From: Geodermatophilaceae bacterium NBWT11
GTDB lineage: Bacteria > Actinomycetota > Actinomycetes > Mycobacteriales > Geodermatophilaceae
Reading direction: 5' to 3'
NCBI GenBank assembly: GCA_014218215.1
Contig: CP043652.1
Location: 2,480,001-2,544,000 of the forward strand
Length of the DNA stretch: 64,000 nt
Part shown: in pieces, positions 1 through 8,147 of the stretch
How the letters are laid out: each line of letters opens with the position of its first letter
Numbering within the stretch: the first letter of the stretch is position 1
The notes under the pieces: generated by a model
Seen by the model: only the letters and a program-made list of their open reading frames with translations
The model's database searches: none
What the model was told of the DNA's origin: nothing
Translations under genes and position numbers: made by a program

Positions 1-42
1 GGGATCAGCGGCATCGCCGCCGACTACGGGTTACCACTGTGA
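1..42 (+). CDS. 3' end of an upstream gene, possibly TerD family (partial)
   Basis: The first 13 codons read GISGIAADYGLPL and then TGA, sharing GTGA with the next start at 39. A hydrophobic, AxxYG-type C-terminus is typical of TerD/TerE proteins, and the downstream protein ends similarly (AQAYGFRAITWAD). The four-base overlap implies the same operon. A TTA leucine codon, rare in this GC-rich sequence, lies at 31-33. Too little remains to assign function with certainty. Confidence 0.5.
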   Translation, partial: GISGIAADYGLPL

Positions 43-1220
43 CCACCGTCCCCGGGGACGCGCCCGCCCGCCCGGACCTCGATTGGCTGCGCCACCGGAG
101 CCGCCGTCAACCCGAGACAGGTGCGGTGTCTCCCGCCACCGGGTCGGTCGGGTTGGCCGACTTCTTGGCCGGCCGGACCACCCGCCGGCAGCCTGAGCCG
201 ACGGCCACCCCGGAACCGGCCCTGCCGCAGGTCCACCGCCCGGCCCCGGCCGGGGACCTGCACCTCATGACGCCGGCCGCTGACCCGCTGGACCTGTCCG
301 GTCCGCCGTCGGCCCGACCGACCACTCCACGCGCACCGGCCCCCGTGGCCCCGCCGGGCGGCGACCAGGTGGACCTGTCGCCGCCGAGCACTGTGCGGCC
401 CGCGTCGCGTCAGGTCAGCGAGGACCTCGACCTCTCCTCGTCGGACCTGGACCTGTTCGAGCGGGCACCGCGCCCCGGCCCGTTGCAGGCCCCCGTGTCC
501 GCCGACCTGGCCGTGTCCGACCCGCCGGTCGCTCCGCCGTCCGCCGCCCGCCCTGAGTCCTCCGACCTCGACCTCTTCCCCGAGGCCTCGAGGAACCGGG
601 TGCCGCGGACCCCGGCACCGCCCCCGCGGCTCGAGCCGGTGGTCCGCAGCGTCCCGCGTGTGCCGCCGGGGGGGCGGGTGATCCTGACGCCGCGGGAGCC
701 CACGGTCACGCTCGACCGCGTGCAGTCCGGGGTCGGGGCGCTCACCATCACCGCGATCTGCTCGCCAGCCGTCGGTGACCTCGTACTGGGCGCGGTGCAC
801 CAACTGGCTGACGGCAGCTCCGGCGTGGTCAGCCGCACTGTGGGCATCCCGACGGCTCCGCCGCGTTCGCGCCGGCCGGTGCTCGAAGCCGGCCGCGGCG
901 AGTTCGACCAGATCCGGGTCGACCTGCGCCAGAGCCGGTCATTGCGCCGGTTCGTCGTCTACGCGGTGTCGGCGTCCGAGTCCTCGCTGGCTTGGGGCGG
1001 GACCCTGTTGCTGTCCACCCACGGAGGCTCCCGGGTGGAGATCCCCCTGGACCTGGCCCAACACGACGGCCCCGTCGTCCTCTCGTCCGTCTACGTCGTG
1101 GACGGCGAGTTCGTGGTCCGCGCGGAGCTCGACCCCGTCCGCGGCCTGGTCCGCGACGTCGCGCAGGCCTATGGCTTCCGGGCCATCACCTGGGCCGACG
1201 CCCGCACCCCGGTGCTGTGA
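39..1220 (+). CDS. TerD-domain protein with long disordered N-terminal region
   Basis: This 393-residue protein starts with GTG overlapping the previous stop. Residues 1 to about 205 are Pro/Ala/Asp-rich and look disordered, with two copies of SSDLDLF and related DL(D/H/A)L motifs. Residues from about 210 to the end match the TerD fold: a VTLD start, the pairs of beta strands, SLAWGG, and the AYGFRAITW tail. TerD domains are about 190 residues, bind calcium, and act in tellurite and general stress responses, often membrane-associated. It is first in a tightly overlapped operon with biosynthetic genes. I infer that the tail is a protein-interaction region; its role is unknown. Confidence 0.85.
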   Translation: MTTVPGDAPARPDLDWLRHRSRRQPETGAVSPATGSVGLADFLAGRTTRRQPEPTATPEPALPQVHRPAPAGDLHLMTPAADPLDLSGPPSARPTTPRAPAPVAPPGGDQVDLSPPSTVRPASRQVSEDLDLSSSDLDLFERAPRPGPLQAPVSADLAVSDPPVAPPSAARPESSDLDLFPEASRNRVPRTPAPPPRLEPVVRSVPRVPPGGRVILTPREPTVTLDRVQSGVGALTITAICSPAVGDLVLGAVHQLADGSSGVVSRTVGIPTAPPRSRRPVLEAGRGEFDQIRVDLRQSRSLRRFVVYAVSASESSLAWGGTLLLSTHGGSRVEIPLDLAQHDGPVVLSSVYVVDGEFVVRAELDPVRGLVRDVAQAYGFRAITWADARTPVL

Positions 1221-2401
1221 GCGCTCCCGTCAGGCCGCTCCCGCTGCGGCACTTCGCGCACCTGGACCCCGCCGACGAGCACCGTCTCTTCCTGCAGCCG
1301 CCTCAGCCGGTGGACCCCGAAGGCGACCCCGAGGTCCTCGCGCTGGCGTTGGGAGCCACGCTCTACCTGCCCGCCGACCGGCCGGCGCTTGCCGGCGACG
1401 TCCGCCGGCAGCAAGCCGCCGGGGTGACCAGCGTCGTGCTGTGCCTGGAGGACGCGATCGCAGACGCTGACGTCAAGACCGCGCAGGCCAACCTGGTGCA
1501 CCACGTCCGGGACCTGGCCGCCGACCCGCTCCTGCCTCTGGTGTTCATCCGGGTCCGCTGCGCCGAGCAGGTCGGCGAGCTCATCGACGCGCTGGGGGAC
1601 ACCGCCGCGGTCCTCACCGGTTTCGTGCTGCCCAAGTTCACGGGCGCCACCGGCCCAGCCTTCCTCGAGGCGGTACGGGCGGCGTCGGCCCGGCTGGGTC
1701 GGCCCTTGCGGGTCATGCCCGTCGTGGAGTCCCGGGAGATGGCGCACGCCGAGACCCGGGTCGACGCCCTGGTCCAGGTGCGCGACCTGCTCGCCGAGCA
1801 CCGGGCCGAGGTGCTCGCCGTCCGGATCGGGGCGACCGACCTGTCCGCAGCGTTCGGCTTGAGACGCCGCCGCGAGCTCACCGTCTACGAGGTCCGGGTG
1901 GTCGCTGACGTCATCGCCGACGTGGTCAACGTGCTGGGCCGGGCCGACGGCACCGGCCACGTGGTCACCGGCCCGGTGTGGGAGTACTTCAACAGCCCCG
2001 ACCGGGTCTTCAAGCCCCAGCTGCGCGAGACGCCGTTCCGCGAGCTCGAAGAGCGGTCGCTGCGAGCCGACCTGCTCGCCCGCGACCTGGACGGTCTGAT
2101 CCGTGAGGTGGTGCTCGACCAAGCCAACGGCCTCAACGGCAAAACGGTCATACACCCCACCCACGTGGCCGCCGTGCACGCACTGTCGGTCGTGCCGCAC
2201 GAGGAGCACGCCGATGCCCTCGACATCCTCGGTGCCGGGGCCGGCGGCGGGGTGGCCGCGTCGTCGTACCGGAACAAGATGAACGAGTCCAAGCCGCACC
2301 GGGCCTGGGCCCACCGACTGGTGCAACGAGCGCAGGTGTTCGGCGTAGCTCGGCCCACGACCTCCTTCGTCGACCTGCTCGGCGCCGGGATGCACCCGTG
2401 A
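1217..2401 (+). CDS. CitE/HpcH-HpaI-like TIM-barrel C-C bond lyase of the Ter biosynthetic module
   Basis: This 394-residue protein is started at the GTG overlapping the upstream TGA (GTGA). It reads LYLPADRP near the N-terminus, then VVLCLEDAIADADV, VVESREMAHAET and IRIGATDLSAAFGL, the Mg-binding Glu/Asp pattern of citrate lyase beta/HpcH aldolases. The C-terminal NGKTVIHPTHV motif is also typical of CitE proteins. Pfam's C-C_Bond_Lyase family occurs in Ter operons with phosphoribosyltransferases and HAD enzymes (Anantharaman, Iyer and Aravind 2012), proposed to make a nucleoside-like metabolite. The substrate is not known. The downstream gene also overlaps by four bases, so translation is probably coupled. 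Confidence 0.88.
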   Translation: MSAPVRPLPLRHFAHLDPADEHRLFLQPPQPVDPEGDPEVLALALGATLYLPADRPALAGDVRRQQAAGVTSVVLCLEDAIADADVKTAQANLVHHVRDLAADPLLPLVFIRVRCAEQVGELIDALGDTAAVLTGFVLPKFTGATGPAFLEAVRAASARLGRPLRVMPVVESREMAHAETRVDALVQVRDLLAEHRAEVLAVRIGATDLSAAFGLRRRRELTVYEVRVVADVIADVVNVLGRADGTGHVVTGPVWEYFNSPDRVFKPQLRETPFRELEERSLRADLLARDLDGLIREVVLDQANGLNGKTVIHPTHVAAVHALSVVPHEEHADALDILGAGAGGGVAASSYRNKMNESKPHRAWAHRLVQRAQVFGVARPTTSFVDLLGAGMHP

Positions 2402-4881
2402 CCGCCGGCTCGCCCTGGACCGGGGAGTGGGTGTGCGGTGAGCTCGACATCGTCGTCACCACCACCGACGCAGCAGGGTCCCTGAACGTCACCGACCTGG
2501 TGGGGATGGCCGTGCGGGTCAACCCGCGGCGTGCCCATCTGCTGGTCAGCCGGGTGCTGGGCAAGCACGTGCCGGCCGACCCCGACGTCGTGCGCGGGGC
2601 CGGCATGCTGCTCGGCCGACTGGTCGCCGACCGTCTGGCCGGGGTCGACAGCGGCGTGGCCGCCGCTGGCGGGGACCTCCTCGCAGCCGCCGTCCGCGGA
2701 GACAGCGGCGCTCCGGCCAGCCTGGTCGAGCTCACCCGGTGGACCACCGATCGCGCTCCGTGCGACGTGCTCGTGCTCGGCTACGCCGAGACTGCGACAG
2801 GCCTGGGCCACCTGGTCGCCGATGCGCTCGACACTGATGTCCTGCACTCGACGCGCCGACCGGTCGGCACGACACCCTTTGGCACGTTCGAGGAGGTGCA
2901 CTCGCACGCGACTGGCCACCTCTTGCTGCCCGACGATCCCGGCCTGTTCGCCGGGGATCGCCCGGTCGTGCTGGTAGACGACGAGTTGTCGACCGGGGCC
3001 ACGGTCATGGACACCATTCGGGGAATCCAGGCAGTCGCGCCGCGGCACCGGTGGGTCGTGGCCAGTCTGGTCGACCTGCGAACGGCCGAGGCCCGCGTGG
3101 AGCTGGACCGCTTCGCCGACTCGCTGGGCGTACAGATCGACGTGGTGGCGCTGGCAACCGGGGTGGTCGATCTGCCCGTCGACGTCTTGGCCCGCGGGAG
3201 GAAGTTGGTCGCCCAGCGCCTTGCCGGGGATGACGCACCCCCCAGCCCGGACGCCGGAGGACCAGTTGCGGAAGTGCACACCGGTTCCGGAATCCGGGAC
3301 GGCGGCCGGCACGGCTTCACCCCTGCCGACCGTCGCGCGATGGAGTCGGCCCTCCCCGGGATCGCCGCCCAGGTGGTCGGGGCGCTGGGCCCAGTCGCCG
3401 GCCGGGTGCTGGTCCTCGGCAGTGAGGAACTGGTCTACCTACCGGTGCGAGTTGCCGGCGAGCTGTCCGCTCGCGGGGTCGACGTGGTCGTGTCGAGCAC
3501 CAGCCGCTCCCCGGTGCTGGCGGTCGACGACCCTGGGTACGCCGTCCGGTCAGTTGTGCGCTTCCCCAGCCACGATCGGCCCGCGGATGGCCCGGGTCCA
3601 CGCTTCGCGTACAACGTGGCCCCGCCTGTGGGGGTCGGTGCCTTCGCCGCCGCCGTCCTCGTGGTCGACGACGCGAGTCGAGATTGGAGTGACGATCCGT
3701 CTGCGCTGCCCTCCGTGTTGGCGTCGGTCGTCGACGGGCCGGTTGTGGTGGTGACCGTCCCCAGCCATCGGCCCACCCCGGAGCCCCTGCGTGGCCCGAC
3801 CTTCGGTTCCTACGCCCCTGACGAGGTGGGCTGGCTGCTCACCGATCTCTCGCACCTATCGCTGGAAGCCCCGGTGGAGGATCGCGAACGTGCCATCCAG
3901 GCTGGCCGTGCGCATTACTCGGAGTCCTTGCCTGTGGAGTACCAGCCCGGTCCTGCCTACCTGGAACTGTTCGAGCAGGCTCTGGCGGCCTCCGCTTCCC
4001 GTCTCGCTACAGCGGTGGGTGTGGTGACCGAGGTGGTGCTCGCTGGCCGGTCCCGGCCCCCGGTGCTGGTGTCGCTGGCTCGCGCGGGCACGCCCATCGG
4101 TGTGCTGATGCGGCGCTGGGCGGCCCTGCGCCGGATCGACGTCCCCCACCTGACCGTCTCCATCGTCCGGGGACGTGGGCTGGACCCCCGAGCGCTCGAC
4201 CACCTGGCAGCCCACTACGACCCAGCCGACGTGGTCTTCGTCGACGGGTGGACGGGTAAAGGGGCGATCACCCGCGAGCTGTCGGCGGCGGTGAGAGGAG
4301 CAGAACGTGAGCAGGCCCGCGGCTTCCGGCCCGAGCTCGCGGTCGTCGCGGACCCCGGCGGCTGCACGTCGCTGTTCGGCACCCGAGAGGACTTCCTCAT
4401 CCCCTCGGCGTGCTTGAACTCCACCGTCTCCGGATTGGTGTCGCGGACGGTGCTCCGAGATGACCTGGTGCCGCCGGGCGGTTACCACGGTGCGAAGTTC
4501 TACCGCGAGCTTGCGGCCCAGGACGTCTCGGGCAGGTTCTTGGACGTCGTGTCCAGCCACTTCGAGTCGGTTGTCGACGATGTGGCTCGCAACCTGGCGG
4601 CCCCAGTGGACCGAGCCCCCACCTGGGCCGGCTGGGCCGCTGTGGAGGAGGTCGCGCAGGGGTTCGGCATCACAGACCTGAACCTGGTCAAGCCCGGGGT
4701 CGGGGAGACCACCAGGGTGCTCTTGCGCCGTGTGCCGTGGAAGGTGCTGGTGCGGCCCGACCGGACGGCTGAGCTTGCTCACGTCCTCCACCTGGCGAGC
4801 GACCGCGGCGTCGAGGTCGAGACGCGTCCGGACATGCCGTTCTCCTGCATCGGTGTCATCCGCCCTGGCGGGGCCACGTAG
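2398..4881 (+). CDS. Four-domain fusion: phosphoribosyltransferase (PRTase_2)-TRSP-StiP-PELOTA_1
   Basis: This 827-residue protein starts with GTG overlapping the previous stop by four bases. In order: PRTase_2, about residues 1-260, with PRPP-binding loop VVLVDDELSTGAT near 189; a TRSP-like domain, about 300-430, with the signature as TSRSP; a StiP (putative cysteine protease) domain, about 480-735, with LVSLARAGTPIG, VVFVDGWTGKGAI and SACLNSTVSG; and a PELOTA-type RNA-binding domain, about 740-827. In many Ter operons these occur as two separate proteins, so this looks like a full fusion. The proposed role is assembly of a ribosylated metabolite under stress. It ends in TAG, unusual here. 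Confidence 0.88.
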   Translation: MTAGSPWTGEWVCGELDIVVTTTDAAGSLNVTDLVGMAVRVNPRRAHLLVSRVLGKHVPADPDVVRGAGMLLGRLVADRLAGVDSGVAAAGGDLLAAAVRGDSGAPASLVELTRWTTDRAPCDVLVLGYAETATGLGHLVADALDTDVLHSTRRPVGTTPFGTFEEVHSHATGHLLLPDDPGLFAGDRPVVLVDDELSTGATVMDTIRGIQAVAPRHRWVVASLVDLRTAEARVELDRFADSLGVQIDVVALATGVVDLPVDVLARGRKLVAQRLAGDDAPPSPDAGGPVAEVHTGSGIRDGGRHGFTPADRRAMESALPGIAAQVVGALGPVAGRVLVLGSEELVYLPVRVAGELSARGVDVVVSSTSRSPVLAVDDPGYAVRSVVRFPSHDRPADGPGPRFAYNVAPPVGVGAFAAAVLVVDDASRDWSDDPSALPSVLASVVDGPVVVVTVPSHRPTPEPLRGPTFGSYAPDEVGWLLTDLSHLSLEAPVEDRERAIQAGRAHYSESLPVEYQPGPAYLELFEQALAASASRLATAVGVVTEVVLAGRSRPPVLVSLARAGTPIGVLMRRWAALRRIDVPHLTVSIVRGRGLDPRALDHLAAHYDPADVVFVDGWTGKGAITRELSAAVRGAEREQARGFRPELAVVADPGGCTSLFGTREDFLIPSACLNSTVSGLVSRTVLRDDLVPPGGYHGAKFYRELAAQDVSGRFLDVVSSHFESVVDDVARNLAAPVDRAPTWAGWAAVEEVAQGFGITDLNLVKPGVGETTRVLLRRVPWKVLVRPDRTAELAHVLHLASDRGVEVETRPDMPFSCIGVIRPGGAT

Positions 4882-5711
4882 TGACAGCCGACGTCCTCAT
4901 CGCCACGGATCTCGACCGCACGCTCATCTACTCGGCGAACGCGGCGGGAGAGCCGTTGCCGGGGGAGCCGCCCTGGGTGGTGGTGGAGCACCTGGACGGG
5001 CGGGCCATCTCGTACGTCTCCGCGCTCGCGGCCAGCCGTTACGAGACCCTGGCCGATGCCTGGTGCGTCGTCCCGGTGACCACCCGGACCCCTGCGCAGC
5101 TGGCACGGATCCGACTGCCGGGTCCGGCCCCCAGGTACGCCGTGGCCGCGAATGGTGGGGTCCTGCTCGAGGAGGGGAAGCCCGATCACCTGTGGGCGGA
5201 GACGGTTGCCGCGGCCATGGCCAAGGTTGCTGCGGTCGACGAGGCCCACGCCGCACTTGCTCGCGCCTGCTCGGCGGACCTCAGTGCGCGGCTGTACACC
5301 GTGCCCGGCCTGTTTTGCTATGCCGTTGTCGACCGGCCGGCGTTCTCGGAGGACAGGCTTGCCGAGCTGCGCGCCTGGGGCCGTGTGACGGGGTGGGGAG
5401 TTTCGCTACAGGGCCGCAAGCTCTATCTCGTACCGACGGTTCTGACCAAGTCCGCTGCGGTCGCCGAAGTGGCCCGACGCGCGAGGGCTCGGTGTGTGCT
5501 CGCTGCCGGTGACTCTCTCCTGGACATCGACCTCTTGGAGTTTGCGGACGCCGCCGTCAGGCCGGGGCATGGTGAGCTGGCGGAGCGCAGTTGGTCGCGG
5601 CCGCATGTAACGACCCTCGAGTCGCAGGGCATCAGGGCCGGGGAGGATGTCCTGGCCTGGTTCGCAGAGCAAGCCGGCGAGCGTCGAGCCGGGATGGTGT
5701 CCCCGCTCTAG
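4881..5711 (+). CDS. HAD-superfamily hydrolase of the Ter module
   Basis: This 276-residue protein starts with GTG sharing one base with the previous TAG. The N-terminus reads IATDLDRTLIY, the HAD motif I (DxDxT), with a Ser/Thr motif II near PVTTRT, a Lys (LTKSAAV) and the acidic motif IV AGDSLLDIDLL near residue 211. The cap insertion between motifs II and III resembles type IIB (sugar- or nucleotide-phosphate phosphatases). As the last gene of the Ter operon it probably dephosphorylates an intermediate of the nucleoside-like product. This is inferred from family context. It ends in TAG 43 bases before the tRNA fragment. Confidence 0.85.
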   Translation: MTADVLIATDLDRTLIYSANAAGEPLPGEPPWVVVEHLDGRAISYVSALAASRYETLADAWCVVPVTTRTPAQLARIRLPGPAPRYAVAANGGVLLEEGKPDHLWAETVAAAMAKVAAVDEAHAALARACSADLSARLYTVPGLFCYAVVDRPAFSEDRLAELRAWGRVTGWGVSLQGRKLYLVPTVLTKSAAVAEVARRARARCVLAAGDSLLDIDLLEFADAAVRPGHGELAERSWSRPHVTTLESQGIRAGEDVLAWFAEQAGERRAGMVSPL

Positions 5712-5753
5712 CTTGCTGGCTGATGCGCGCAGCGTGGGGCCGTTGGCGTCGCC

Positions 5754-5806
5754 GGAAACCCGCTGGGAGTGAAAGCTCCTCGAGGGTTCGAATCCCTCGC
5801 CCTCCG
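5754..5806 (+). other. tRNA-Ser(GGA) 3' fragment, candidate island att site
   Basis: From the anticodon onward this matches the 3' half of a serine tRNA: GGA anticodon (5754-5756), AA, anticodon-stem strand CCCGC, a long class II variable arm with GGAG/CTCC, T-stem GAGGG, loop TTCGAAT, CCCTC, acceptor strand GCCCTCC, and discriminator G at 5806. No GGAGGGC 5' strand, D-arm or 5' anticodon stem lies upstream; instead there is the end of the HAD gene. It cannot be a working tRNA, and is best read as the displaced 3' half left at the distal end of an integrated element. Confidence 0.75.
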
Positions 5807-5826
5807 CTCGAGCAGGTCGCGGGGGA

Positions 5827-6132
5827 TCAGACCCCGGCCATCACGGTGGTCCGGGTCAGCTGCGGCGCCGCCGCCAGCACCTCCGCCAGCCGGGAGGCCC
5901 CCTCCGGTGTCTGGCGCCAGGCCCGGTAGGCGTCGTCGTGCTCCAGCGACTCCCAGCGCTCCACCACCACGACGTGGGCCGGGTCGGTGGCGTCGACCGT
6001 CACCTCCACCCCGAGGCAGCCGGCGAAGGCGCGGGTGGCCTCGAGGGTGGTGGTGAGGAGGCGCCCGGTCCCCTCCGAGTCGGCGGCGGCAGCGGGGGAC
6101 AGGGTCAGCTCCAGCAACGAGATCACGGTCAT
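5827..6132 (-). CDS. Putative quinol monooxygenase (antibiotic biosynthesis monooxygenase family)
   Basis: This 101-residue protein starts at ATG 6132 (MTVISLLEL). It has the small alpha/beta ferredoxin-like ABM pattern: LLTTTLEATRAFAGCLGVEV, then HVVVVERWESLEHDDAYRAW, where the aromatic/His positions line a small hydrophobic pocket. The family includes YgiN-type quinol monooxygenases and many uncharacterised stress proteins. It is the first chromosomal gene to the right of the island scar and lies downstream of the helicase on the same strand. Substrate unknown. Confidence 0.85.
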   Translation of the reverse strand: MTVISLLELTLSPAAAADSEGTGRLLTTTLEATRAFAGCLGVEVTVDATDPAHVVVVERWESLEHDDAYRAWRQTPEGASRLAEVLAAAPQLTRTTVMAGV

Positions 6133-6161: not shown

Positions 6162-8147
6162 TCAGCGAGCGCCCGTGGGCCCTCCGCCCGAGCGCCCGCG
6201 GCGCCGGTGCTTGGGCCGGTCCGAGGGCGGGGGCCCGGCGTCGGAGCCGCGGCCGCGGTCGGCGCGGTTGTGCGCGTTCGGGTCCTGCCGGCCACCGGCG
6301 CCGATGTCGGACTTGCGCGGCTTGCGGCCGCCCGTCGTCCCCCCGGACTTGGCGCCCGAGGACGAGCCCGAGCGGGACGGGCGACCGGAGCGGGCCGGAG
6401 CACCCTCGCGCGGCGGACGACGGTCCGAGGCAGCCGGCCGACCGGCCGGGCGGGTGCCGCAGTCCCGGCAGGTGGTGAACCACGGCGCGATCGGCGTCCC
6501 GCACTCGACGCACTTCGCGGCGGTGGACATGGCGATCGCGTCGGGCAGCAGCTCGGTGATCCGCTGCGCGCACTTCTGCTCGTTGGCAGCGGCGTCCTCG
6601 CTGGTCAGGCCGGCGACCCCGGGGAAGGAGCGGAGCAGCGTCTGGGCCTCGCGGGCCTGCGCGGCGGCCATCTCGAAGTCCTGCACCGTGGCGGTGCGGG
6701 GGACGTCGGGCAGCACCAGCTCGCGGCTGACGTGCAGCCCGGCTTCGTGCTGCAGGGCGGCGCGGGCCAGCGCGAGCCAGCGCACCTTGCGCGGCGGGTC
6801 GTGGTCGACGGCCAGGTTGATCAACCGCCAGACCGTCCACAGGTCGGTGGCCAGCGGGCCGCGCAGCATCGGGAGCAGGGCCTGCACCCGGATGACCAGG
6901 CCGGTGACGTCGTCCGGCGTCATGACCTGGGAGTCCTTGGTGGCCGCGCGGGCCCAGGCGGCCCAGCGGGTCAGCGCCTCGGGCAGGTCGACGGCCTCGA
7001 ACGCGCCGAGGTCCTCGAGCTCCGGGCGCAGCCGCGGACGGCGGTGCGGCAGGTCGCTCATCACGTCGCCGCGGGCGACGGAGGCGCCGGCGACGACGAG
7101 GGAGGGCACCGGCTTGAGGCCGGGGATGCCGCCGAGGACGCCGACGGTGCCGTGCCCGGTGAGGCCGTACCGCCCGGCGCGACCGGCGATCTGGGCGGCC
7201 TCCCAGGTGCGCAGCGGGCGCAGCTCGGTGCCGTCGTACTTGGTGGTCTCGGCGAACAGCACCGTCGTCGCGGGCACGTTGATGCCGTGCCCGATCACGT
7301 CGGTGGTGACCAGCACCTCGAGCTCGCCGCGGGTGAAGCGGTCGATGACGTCGCGCCGGGTGGCCGGCGGCAGCGCCCCGTAGAGGACGCCGACCTTCCC
7401 CTGGCGGTGCGGGTCGAGCTGCGCGGCGACGGCGTAGACGGTCTTGCGGGAGAACGCGACGACCAGCGTCTGGGCCTGCACGTGGGCCGGGCGGACCGGC
7501 CGCTCCAGCACGTCGAGCCGGGACAGCCGCTTGTGGTTGACCACGACGACCTGCTGGGCGTCGGCGACCAGCGGGCGCAGCAGCAGCAGCGCCTCGGCGG
7601 CGGAGATGAGGTGCATCTCGCGGTACTCACCGGTCAGCAGCAGCCGGGCCCAGTGGTGGCCGCGGTCGGGGTCGGCGACCCAGTGCGACTCGTCGAGGAC
7701 CAGCAGGTCACCGCGCGGCGGGGCCTTCTCCACCGTGCAGCAGACGATCGGCGCGTACGGGTCGATCTCCTCCTCGCCGGTCGACAGACCGACGGTGCCG
7801 GCGGGCAGCTGGGCGGAGAGCTTGGCGTACGCCTCGTGCGCGAGCTGGCGCAGGGGGGCGGCGTAGACGCCGGAGCCGGCGGCCGCGAGGGCCTGCAGCG
7901 ACTCGTAGGTCTTGCCGGAGTTGGTGGGGCCGAGGTGGAAGACCACGTGCTCGGGCCGGGTGGTGCGCACCGGCAGCGCGGGCTCGGCGCCGTCGACCCA
8001 GGTCTGCTGGGCGCGGCGCTCGTCGCGGGCGGCGGCCTTGTCGGCGGTGCGGGCGGTCGCCTCGTCGGCGGCACGGCGGGCGGCCTTGCCGGGGCGGCCG
8101 GAGGGGGTGCGCACCCGGCGACGGGCGGCGGGGGAGGGAGGGGTCAC
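6162..8147 (-). CDS. SUV3-like DExH RNA helicase with zinc ribbon and basic tail
   Basis: This 661-residue protein starts at GTG 8147, supported by AAGGA a few bases upstream. After a basic N-terminus of about 70 residues comes Walker A GPTNSGKT, then VDLL-type motif II LVLDESH, SAA, motif V VTTDVIGHGINVP and motif VI QIAGRAGRYG. GPTNSGKT and the overall layout match the SUV3 mitochondrial/bacterial RNA helicase group rather than DEAD-box enzymes. A C-x2-C...C-x2-C zinc ribbon (KCVECG...CRDCG) follows near residue 560, then about 90 residues rich in Arg, Gly, Ser and Pro, probably an RNA-binding disordered tail. Likely role: RNA unwinding during decay or processing. Confidence 0.88.
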   Translation of the reverse strand: MTPPSPAARRRVRTPSGRPGKAARRAADEATARTADKAAARDERRAQQTWVDGAEPALPVRTTRPEHVVFHLGPTNSGKTYESLQALAAAGSGVYAAPLRQLAHEAYAKLSAQLPAGTVGLSTGEEEIDPYAPIVCCTVEKAPPRGDLLVLDESHWVADPDRGHHWARLLLTGEYREMHLISAAEALLLLRPLVADAQQVVVVNHKRLSRLDVLERPVRPAHVQAQTLVVAFSRKTVYAVAAQLDPHRQGKVGVLYGALPPATRRDVIDRFTRGELEVLVTTDVIGHGINVPATTVLFAETTKYDGTELRPLRTWEAAQIAGRAGRYGLTGHGTVGVLGGIPGLKPVPSLVVAGASVARGDVMSDLPHRRPRLRPELEDLGAFEAVDLPEALTRWAAWARAATKDSQVMTPDDVTGLVIRVQALLPMLRGPLATDLWTVWRLINLAVDHDPPRKVRWLALARAALQHEAGLHVSRELVLPDVPRTATVQDFEMAAAQAREAQTLLRSFPGVAGLTSEDAAANEQKCAQRITELLPDAIAMSTAAKCVECGTPIAPWFTTCRDCGTRPAGRPAASDRRPPREGAPARSGRPSRSGSSSGAKSGGTTGGRKPRKSDIGAGGRQDPNAHNRADRGRGSDAGPPPSDRPKHRRRGRSGGGPTGAR

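What the first reader, a model, noticed from the sequence alone, without database searches (positions are those of the whole stretch)
5754..5806. tRNA-Ser(GGA) half marks the right edge of an island
A tRNA 3' half beginning at the anticodon, with a complete variable arm and T-arm but no 5' half, directly follows the Ter operon. It predicts an intact copy of the same 53 bases at the left end of the element.
Basis: partly seen in the sequence, partly recalled or inferred. Interest (0 to 1): 0.65.

Follow-up and report, generated by a model that had tools for sequence, protein, structure and literature searches.

The report
Displaced tRNA-Ser(UGA) half at island edge
The tRNA scrap is the scar left when a mobile element inserted into the chromosome's tRNA-Ser(UGA) gene, a common route by which bacteria gain gene islands; here the island holds a tellurite-type stress gene cluster.

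Summary
The tRNA 3' part at 5754-5807 is real: 50 of 53 bases match the end of an intact gene; the next best place in the window gives 30 of 53. The intact copy lies 14.9 kb to the left, outside the window. It is tRNA-Ser(UGA), not Ser(GGA); the true Ser(GGA) gene lies about 123 kb to the right and differs. Between the two copies are a broken tyrosine integrase, beside the intact gene, and a 14-kb TerC/TerD/TelA cluster. Goekera, a neighbouring genus, has the empty site. Five of the 8 other genomes searched in the genus also have a displaced half. So the island reading holds, with a corrected tRNA. Two qualifications: the sequence left of the scar lacks the attachment arm that four relatives share, and three relatives carry the Ter cluster at two other places. 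The integrase may therefore not have brought the Ter genes. An ordinary, decayed tRNA island: a new member of a known kind.

The parts
5754..5807 (+). displaced 3' part of tRNA-Ser(UGA), from the anticodon to the end of the acceptor stem (right attachment-site scar)
   Evidence: 50 of 53 bases identical to the last 53 of the intact gene at G000:C1:2470821-2470908
5738..5751 (+). possible diverged trace of the D-arm region of the same tRNA; tentative
   Evidence: 12 of 14 in register, 7 of 20,000 random places as good; free local search weak, 363 of 10,000
39..1220 (+). Ter-cluster gene, no Pfam match at 0.001
   Evidence: lies inside the block conserved in relatives, though 212-497 aligns poorly
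1229..2401 (+). C-C_Bond_Lyase (citrate-lyase-like TIM barrel) of the Ter cluster; start codon uncertain
   Evidence: PF15617, E 9.6e-118
2398..4881 (+). PRTase_2 - TRSP - StiP - PELOTA_1 protein of the Ter cluster
   Evidence: four Pfam domains
4881..5711 (+). HAD-IIB-like hydrolase, last gene of the Ter cluster
   Evidence: NCBIfam HAD-IIB matches, all below their cut-offs; no Pfam match
5827..6132 (-). ABM-domain gene between the scar and the conserved flank; start codon uncertain
   Evidence: PF03992; no tblastn match in 47 fetched loci
6162..7970 (-). Suv3-like helicase, conserved right flank of the hotspot; start codon uncertain
   Evidence: PF22527 and PF00271; 81-84% DNA matches of 1.8-2.2 kb in 6 of 8 other genomes of the genus, a 144-base match in G006 and only a weak one in G005

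Best explanation
The fragment is the displaced 3' part of the chromosome's tRNA-Ser(UGA) gene. A tyrosine integrase recombined an element's attachment site with the anticodon-loop region of that gene; the element supplied a new 3' half, so the gene stayed whole at the left end, and the old half was pushed to the right end. The locus, between tRNA-Ser(UGA) and a Suv3-like helicase gene, is a hotspot with DNA of different length and content among relatives. Here the element is a wreck: of its own parts only about 0.7 kb at the left (arm plus the C-terminal half of a broken integrase) and the scar at the right are recognisable, and a 14-kb Ter (tellurite-type stress) cluster fills the space. Shown: the two copies, the integrase remnant, the empty site in Goekera, the two tRNA versions in two relatives. 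Inferred: the reaction itself, the order of events, and that the present island cannot move on its own.
For: Intact tRNA-Ser(UGA) at G000:C1:2470821-2470908, same strand. Beyond it lies a Phage_integrase C-terminal match (PF00589), which matches residues 172-351 of the 387-aa integrase of relative G008 with two stops inside; G008 and G005 have unbroken 387- and 381-aa frames of it at the same spot. The 150 bases beyond the intact tRNA resemble those of G008, G005 and G007 (0 of 300 random stretches score as high). Empty site: in Goekera deserti (L047) the tRNA-Ser(UGA), identical over 90 of 90 bases, ends 130 bp from the in-frame helicase stop. Half swaps: in G004 and G005 the intact gene has a different variable arm (in G004 also a different T stem), while the displaced piece has the version seen in other relatives; in G004 the bases shared by both copies bracket the crossover to 14 bases, anticodon loop to just after the anticodon stem. 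Displaced halves in G002, G004, G005, G006, G008. GC 69.4% in the Ter cluster against 73.9% and 75.0% in the flanks.
Against: The 150 bases left of the scar show no similarity to the arm shared by G008, G002, G005 and G006 (scores within background), so the right scar is not shown to belong to the element that left the integrase. Differences from the intact gene are bunched in the first 17 of 56 bases, not spread as simple decay would be. No empty site was found inside the genus. The intact gene here equals Goekera's, so a swap cannot be seen in this genome. In G004 and G005 the two copies lie on different contigs of draft assemblies, so their linkage is not shown. G001, G003 and G007 have inserted DNA at the locus but no displaced half. 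GC is weak evidence: the cluster is also lower than its flanks in G008, where it sits elsewhere (72.2% against 74.0% and 75.5%).
Confidence: 0.92

Rival explanations
1. Version A of the best explanation: one element carried the Ter cluster in as cargo and then lost its own backbone genes and right arm.
For: Both edges are at the same tRNA gene in the right order and orientation, with the Ter cluster filling the space. Ter clusters in islands at serW and serX are known in E. coli O157 (PMC3064760, passages). Only 42 bases separate the HAD gene from the scar, so the right arm may simply be deleted.
Against: No shared right arm; in three relatives the Ter cluster is not beside this integrase.
Confidence: 0.5
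2. Version B: composite fossil. The scar at 5754 is from an older element, the integrase remnant from a later one, and deletion between them (or entry of the Ter cluster) removed the later element's own right end. The Ter cluster came by another route.
For: No shared right arm. The integrase remnant ends about where TerC ends. The Ter cluster lies at a shared place in G003 and G008 and another in G005, and matches to this integrase (E <= 1e-30) in those genomes lie on other contigs or more than 230 kb away. The scar has 3 changes in its last 53 bases, while G008's shows none from the anticodon loop on against its own gene.
Against: One element is the simpler history. Other kinds of integrase near the Ter clusters of relatives were not sought.
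Confidence: 0.4
3. The fragment is a decayed second tRNA-Ser gene (duplicate) and not a displaced half.
For: A possible D-arm trace at 5738-5751; letters GGA at the anticodon position.
Against: No acceptor 5' strand is seen. The predicted fold of 5720-5807 is no better than shuffles (z 0.44). Relatives have clean 3' halves beside the same tRNA locus or on contigs of their own. The anticodon-to-variable-arm sequence, with up to 2 mismatches, occurs in 2 of 397 genomes of the order: here, and at one place without a tRNA.
Confidence: 0.06
4. Chance resemblance.
For: None found.
Against: 50 of 53 bases against 30 of 53 for the next place in the window.
Confidence: 0.001

Closest known systems
tRNA-gene genomic islands as catalogued by Islander (PMC4383910; abstract and passages seen)
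   Same: Intact tRNA gene at one end, displaced 3' piece in the same orientation at the other, tyrosine integrase beside the intact gene; anticodon-centred class (2083 of the 3919 islands in that paper's table).
   Different: Integrase broken, backbone genes gone, right arm not recognisable.
ter-bearing islands OI-43/OI-48 (SpLE1) of E. coli O157 in serW/serX (PMC3064760; listing with start of abstract, and passages)
   Same: A ter cluster in an island at a serine tRNA gene (serine by the gene names), with an integrase and a tRNA-derived direct repeat.
   Different: There the repeat is the last 14 bases of the gene, the integrase is a putative P4-type one, the islands excise and also carry urease and iha genes. 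Here the repeat runs from the anticodon and the integrase is broken. No sequence comparison between the two was made.
Ter stress-response gene clusters with lyase, phosphoribosyl transferase and HAD genes (recalled; no paper on them was read)
   Same: TerC, TerD, TelA, lyase and PRTase domain families in one cluster.
   Different: No difference was looked for beyond its position at a tRNA gene.

Membership tests
tRNA-gene genomic island | intact tRNA gene plus a displaced end piece of the same gene, same orientation, 2-200 kb apart (filters in PMC4383910) | tested here: met
   14.9 kb apart, both on + strand
tRNA-gene genomic island | the displaced piece reaches the end of the gene | tested here: met
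   identity runs through the last base of the gene and two bases beyond
tRNA-gene genomic island | integrase gene inside the island | tested here: inconclusive
   only a broken C-terminal part; unbroken relatives of it at the same spot in G008 and G005
tRNA-gene genomic island | empty site in a relative | tested here: met
   Goekera deserti L047, 130 bp between tRNA end and helicase stop; 1 of 29 helicase loci scanned of 80 fetched; none within the genus
tRNA-gene genomic island | both ends derive from one element (arms of one attachment site) | tested here: inconclusive
   left side matches relatives, right side does not; at most 42 bases of a right arm can remain
tRNA-gene genomic island | excision as a circle | not testable with these tools
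   not expected with this broken integrase (inference)
Ter cluster | TerD-domain, TerC and TelA genes together | tested here: met
   five TerD-domain proteins, one TerC, one TelA
   Ser(GGA) at C1:2609280-2609365 has different variable and T arms

The most novel reading that the evidence does not exclude
The two edges come from two different elements, and the Ter cluster replaced the interior without help from either integrase: a conserved 14-kb gene block that enters such places by another, unknown route (it sits at three different places in four genomes of the genus).
Probability: 0.35. Interest if true: 0.4.

Novelty: new member of a known kind. Interest (0 to 1): 0.2.

Why it matters
It places the edges of a variable locus in an actinobacterial genus (Klenkia, judged from its relatives) and gives an example of a Ter stress cluster in a tRNA island. 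A side observation, that elements seem to rewrite the 3' half of the one tRNA-Ser(UGA) gene seen per genome (G004, G005), is a clean natural illustration of a known process.

Tried and rejected
Ser(GGA) as the source: rejected. A copy of the GGA-type anticodon-to-variable-arm sequence elsewhere: searched in 397 genomes of the order (drawn from a larger group) with up to 2 mismatches, found in this genome and at one place in G201 where ARAGORN sees no tRNA. Thirteen viral contigs hold its first 16 bases; these were not looked at further. Phage records: 92 match the intact tRNA at 60-90% identity; of the 20 rows listed, 15 are annotated tRNA-Ser and 5 have no annotation under the match. Six viral contigs hold the last 24 bases; five carry whole tRNA-Ser genes and one, L128, only a 3' half. 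Anti-phage models: no match at 0.001 for 8 Ter-cluster proteins. Papers: no paper in the held library has both Klenkia and genomic island; the search for tellurite resistance, genomic island, tRNA-Ser and integrase gave one Staphylococcus paper, seen in the listing only; the search for Ter-dependent stress response gave 41 papers, 8 listed, none read.

The D-arm trace was tested with three stretches of the tRNA: 7, 36 and 73 of 20,000 random places were as good; a free local search gave 363 of 10,000. I keep it as tentative.

What the large element of G008 is: 10 of its frames were scanned with Pfam and 7 with PHROGs. They gave the integrase, two transposase-type genes and metabolic genes, and no phage structural family, so I did not name its class.

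Full report
What is there. Bases 5754-5807 carry the 3' part of a serine tRNA gene, 42 bases after the stop codon of the last gene of a Ter cluster. The last 53 bases of the intact gene match 50 of 53 here; the next best place on either strand of the window gives 30. No whole tRNA is found in the window.

Where the intact copy is. The window is G000:C1:2480001-2544000 of a 4.59-Mb genome. A search of that genome with the fragment and its surroundings gives one other match, at C1:2470837-2470910. ARAGORN calls it tRNA-Ser with anticodon UGA at 2470821-2470908 (L003:8821-8908). No second full Ser(UGA) gene turned up. The true Ser(GGA) gene is at C1:2609280-2609365, about 123 kb to the right, and its variable and T arms differ.

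The fragment against the intact gene. From the anticodon loop on, 5 of 56 bases differ and all lie in the first 17 (chance 0.0016 if evenly spread). Upstream, 12 of 14 bases resemble the D-arm region in register (7 of 20,000 random places), though a free local search is weak (363 of 10,000); five fragments in relatives show nothing of the kind. Either the piece began longer and has decayed at its left, or its left part came from another attachment site. I cannot decide.

What lies between. Beyond the intact gene is a broken tyrosine integrase on the other strand: a Phage_integrase match, and a match at C1:2471045-2471605 to residues 172-351 of the 387-aa integrase of G008, with two stops. Then come TerC (PF03741), five TerD-domain proteins, TelA (PF05816), and in the window a C-C bond lyase, a PRTase_2-TRSP-StiP-PELOTA_1 protein and a HAD-like hydrolase; some genes of the cluster have no family match. 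The integrase match ends about where TerC ends (TerC stop at C1:2471589), so the integrase's N-terminal half is missing. GC is 69.4% in the Ter cluster against 73.9% and 75.0% in 8-kb flanks.

Relatives. All 9 genomes searched in the genus, this one included, have a match to the tRNA; in G006 it is only the 3' part, on a 7.7-kb contig. Of the 8 others, 5 have a displaced 3' part: G002, G004, G005, G006, G008; G001, G003 and G007 have none at E 0.001. The gap between tRNA and helicase is 15.3 kb here, 5.3 kb in G003, 15.6 kb in G002, about 25 and 27 kb in G001 and G007, and 52 kb in G008; it could not be measured in G004, G005 and G006. In 12 loci fetched around the tRNA or the displaced half of the 8 relatives (for G001 and G007 only part of the gap), the island interior has no DNA match apart from the integrase end in G008 and G005 and short stretches beside the tRNA piece in G004 and G006.

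Empty site. Of 80 helicase loci from named genomes, I scanned 29, the nearer ones, for tRNAs. In Goekera deserti (L047) tRNA-Ser(UGA), 90 of 90 bases identical to the intact gene here, ends 130 bp from the in-frame helicase stop (counted by hand). In the other loci where a tRNA-Ser(UGA) was seen it lies several kilobases from the helicase's end (L046, L052), on the helicase's other side (L030, L034, L039, L044, L050, L051), or in a tRNA array (L054); in the rest none was in reach. No empty site was found within the genus.

How it works. In G004 and G005 the intact gene carries one variable arm (in G004 also a different T stem) and the displaced piece carries another, the one seen in other relatives. 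I read this as the element's half having replaced the host's half. In G004 the bases common to both copies bracket the crossover to 14 bases, from the anticodon loop to just after the anticodon stem. Variable and T arms lie wholly in the swapped half, so their pairing survives. In both genomes the two copies are on different contigs, so linkage is assumed. G006's piece has element-type sequence on both sides: its right side scores above all 300 random stretches against G008's, but not against this genome's (26 of 300). That would fit a junction between tandem elements; it is inference.

One element or two. The 150 bases beyond the intact gene resemble those of G008, G005 and G007 (0 of 300 random stretches as good), so the kind of integrase is clear. 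The 150 bases left of the scar do not match the arms that G008, G002, G005 and G006 largely share (scores 14 to 18 and 19, within background; G002 against G005 is itself weak). G004's does not match them either. The HAD gene comes within 42 bases of the scar, so most of any arm must be gone. The Ter cluster, TerC to HAD, is conserved over about 14 kb, in several pieces, in G008, G005 and, up to a contig end, G003. G003 and G008 share the place; G005 has other flanks. In G008 the cluster is about 2.1 Mb from the tRNA-Ser on one contig; in G003 the tRNA-helicase gap is on another contig and complete; in G005 the cluster is on a 46-kb contig without a tRNA. The large Ter protein has no match in G001, G002, G004, G007 or the incomplete G006. 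In G008 the TerC end lies next to the 5' end of a tRNA-Met gene, not on the 3' side where insertion into tRNA genes is usual. The cluster thus moves or is lost without a clear tie to this integrase. I put 0.5 on cargo of one element and 0.4 on a composite; both are versions of the best explanation.

Compared with the known. The layout fits the definition used by Islander (PMC4383910; abstract and passages), anticodon class, except that the integrase is broken and the right arm is not recognised. Ter clusters in islands at serW and serX are known from E. coli O157, OI-43 and OI-48 (PMC3064760; passages); there the repeat is the last 14 bases of the gene and the islands excise. No sequence comparison with those islands was made. 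The finding is a new member of a known kind, of low surprise.

Noticed in passing
L022:4415-4502 and L023:9793-9851 (G004); L020:11283-11370 and L021:4032-4094 (G005): Intact tRNA-Ser(UGA) and displaced piece carry different 3' halves: an apparent half-gene swap; the copies lie on different contigs.
   Followed up: partly
L024:7298-7356 (G006): A tRNA-Ser 3' half with element-type sequence on both sides, as at a junction of tandem elements.
   Followed up: partly
L128:1479-1502: A viral contig (IMG/VR) carries a tRNA-Ser 3' half that starts at the anticodon loop, with no whole tRNA found, like a phage attachment site.
   Followed up: no
window 2398-4881: PRTase_2, TRSP, StiP and PELOTA_1 domains in one 827-aa protein; in several other genera of the family the matches come in separate pieces, some with a TGA inside.
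   Followed up: no
window 5827-6132: ABM-domain gene between scar and helicase, without a tblastn match in 47 fetched loci: the variable stretch goes beyond the scar.
   Followed up: partly
L052: A record titled Bacillus sp. AZ43 (marked unverified) has this helicase at 75% identity, like Geodermatophilaceae, and a matching tRNA-Ser; the label looks wrong.
   Followed up: no
window 5755-5806, - strand: Rfam family Plastid-psbl-rps4 matches the reverse strand of the tRNA piece (27 bits, cut-off 68, E 0.0018); that model may include antisense tRNA-Ser sequence.
   Followed up: no
L044:6143-6238: ARAGORN reports an undefined tRNA with a four-base anticodon (gggt) in Modestobacter sp. VKM Ac-2984, 3.3 kb from tRNA-Ser(UGA).
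   Followed up: no
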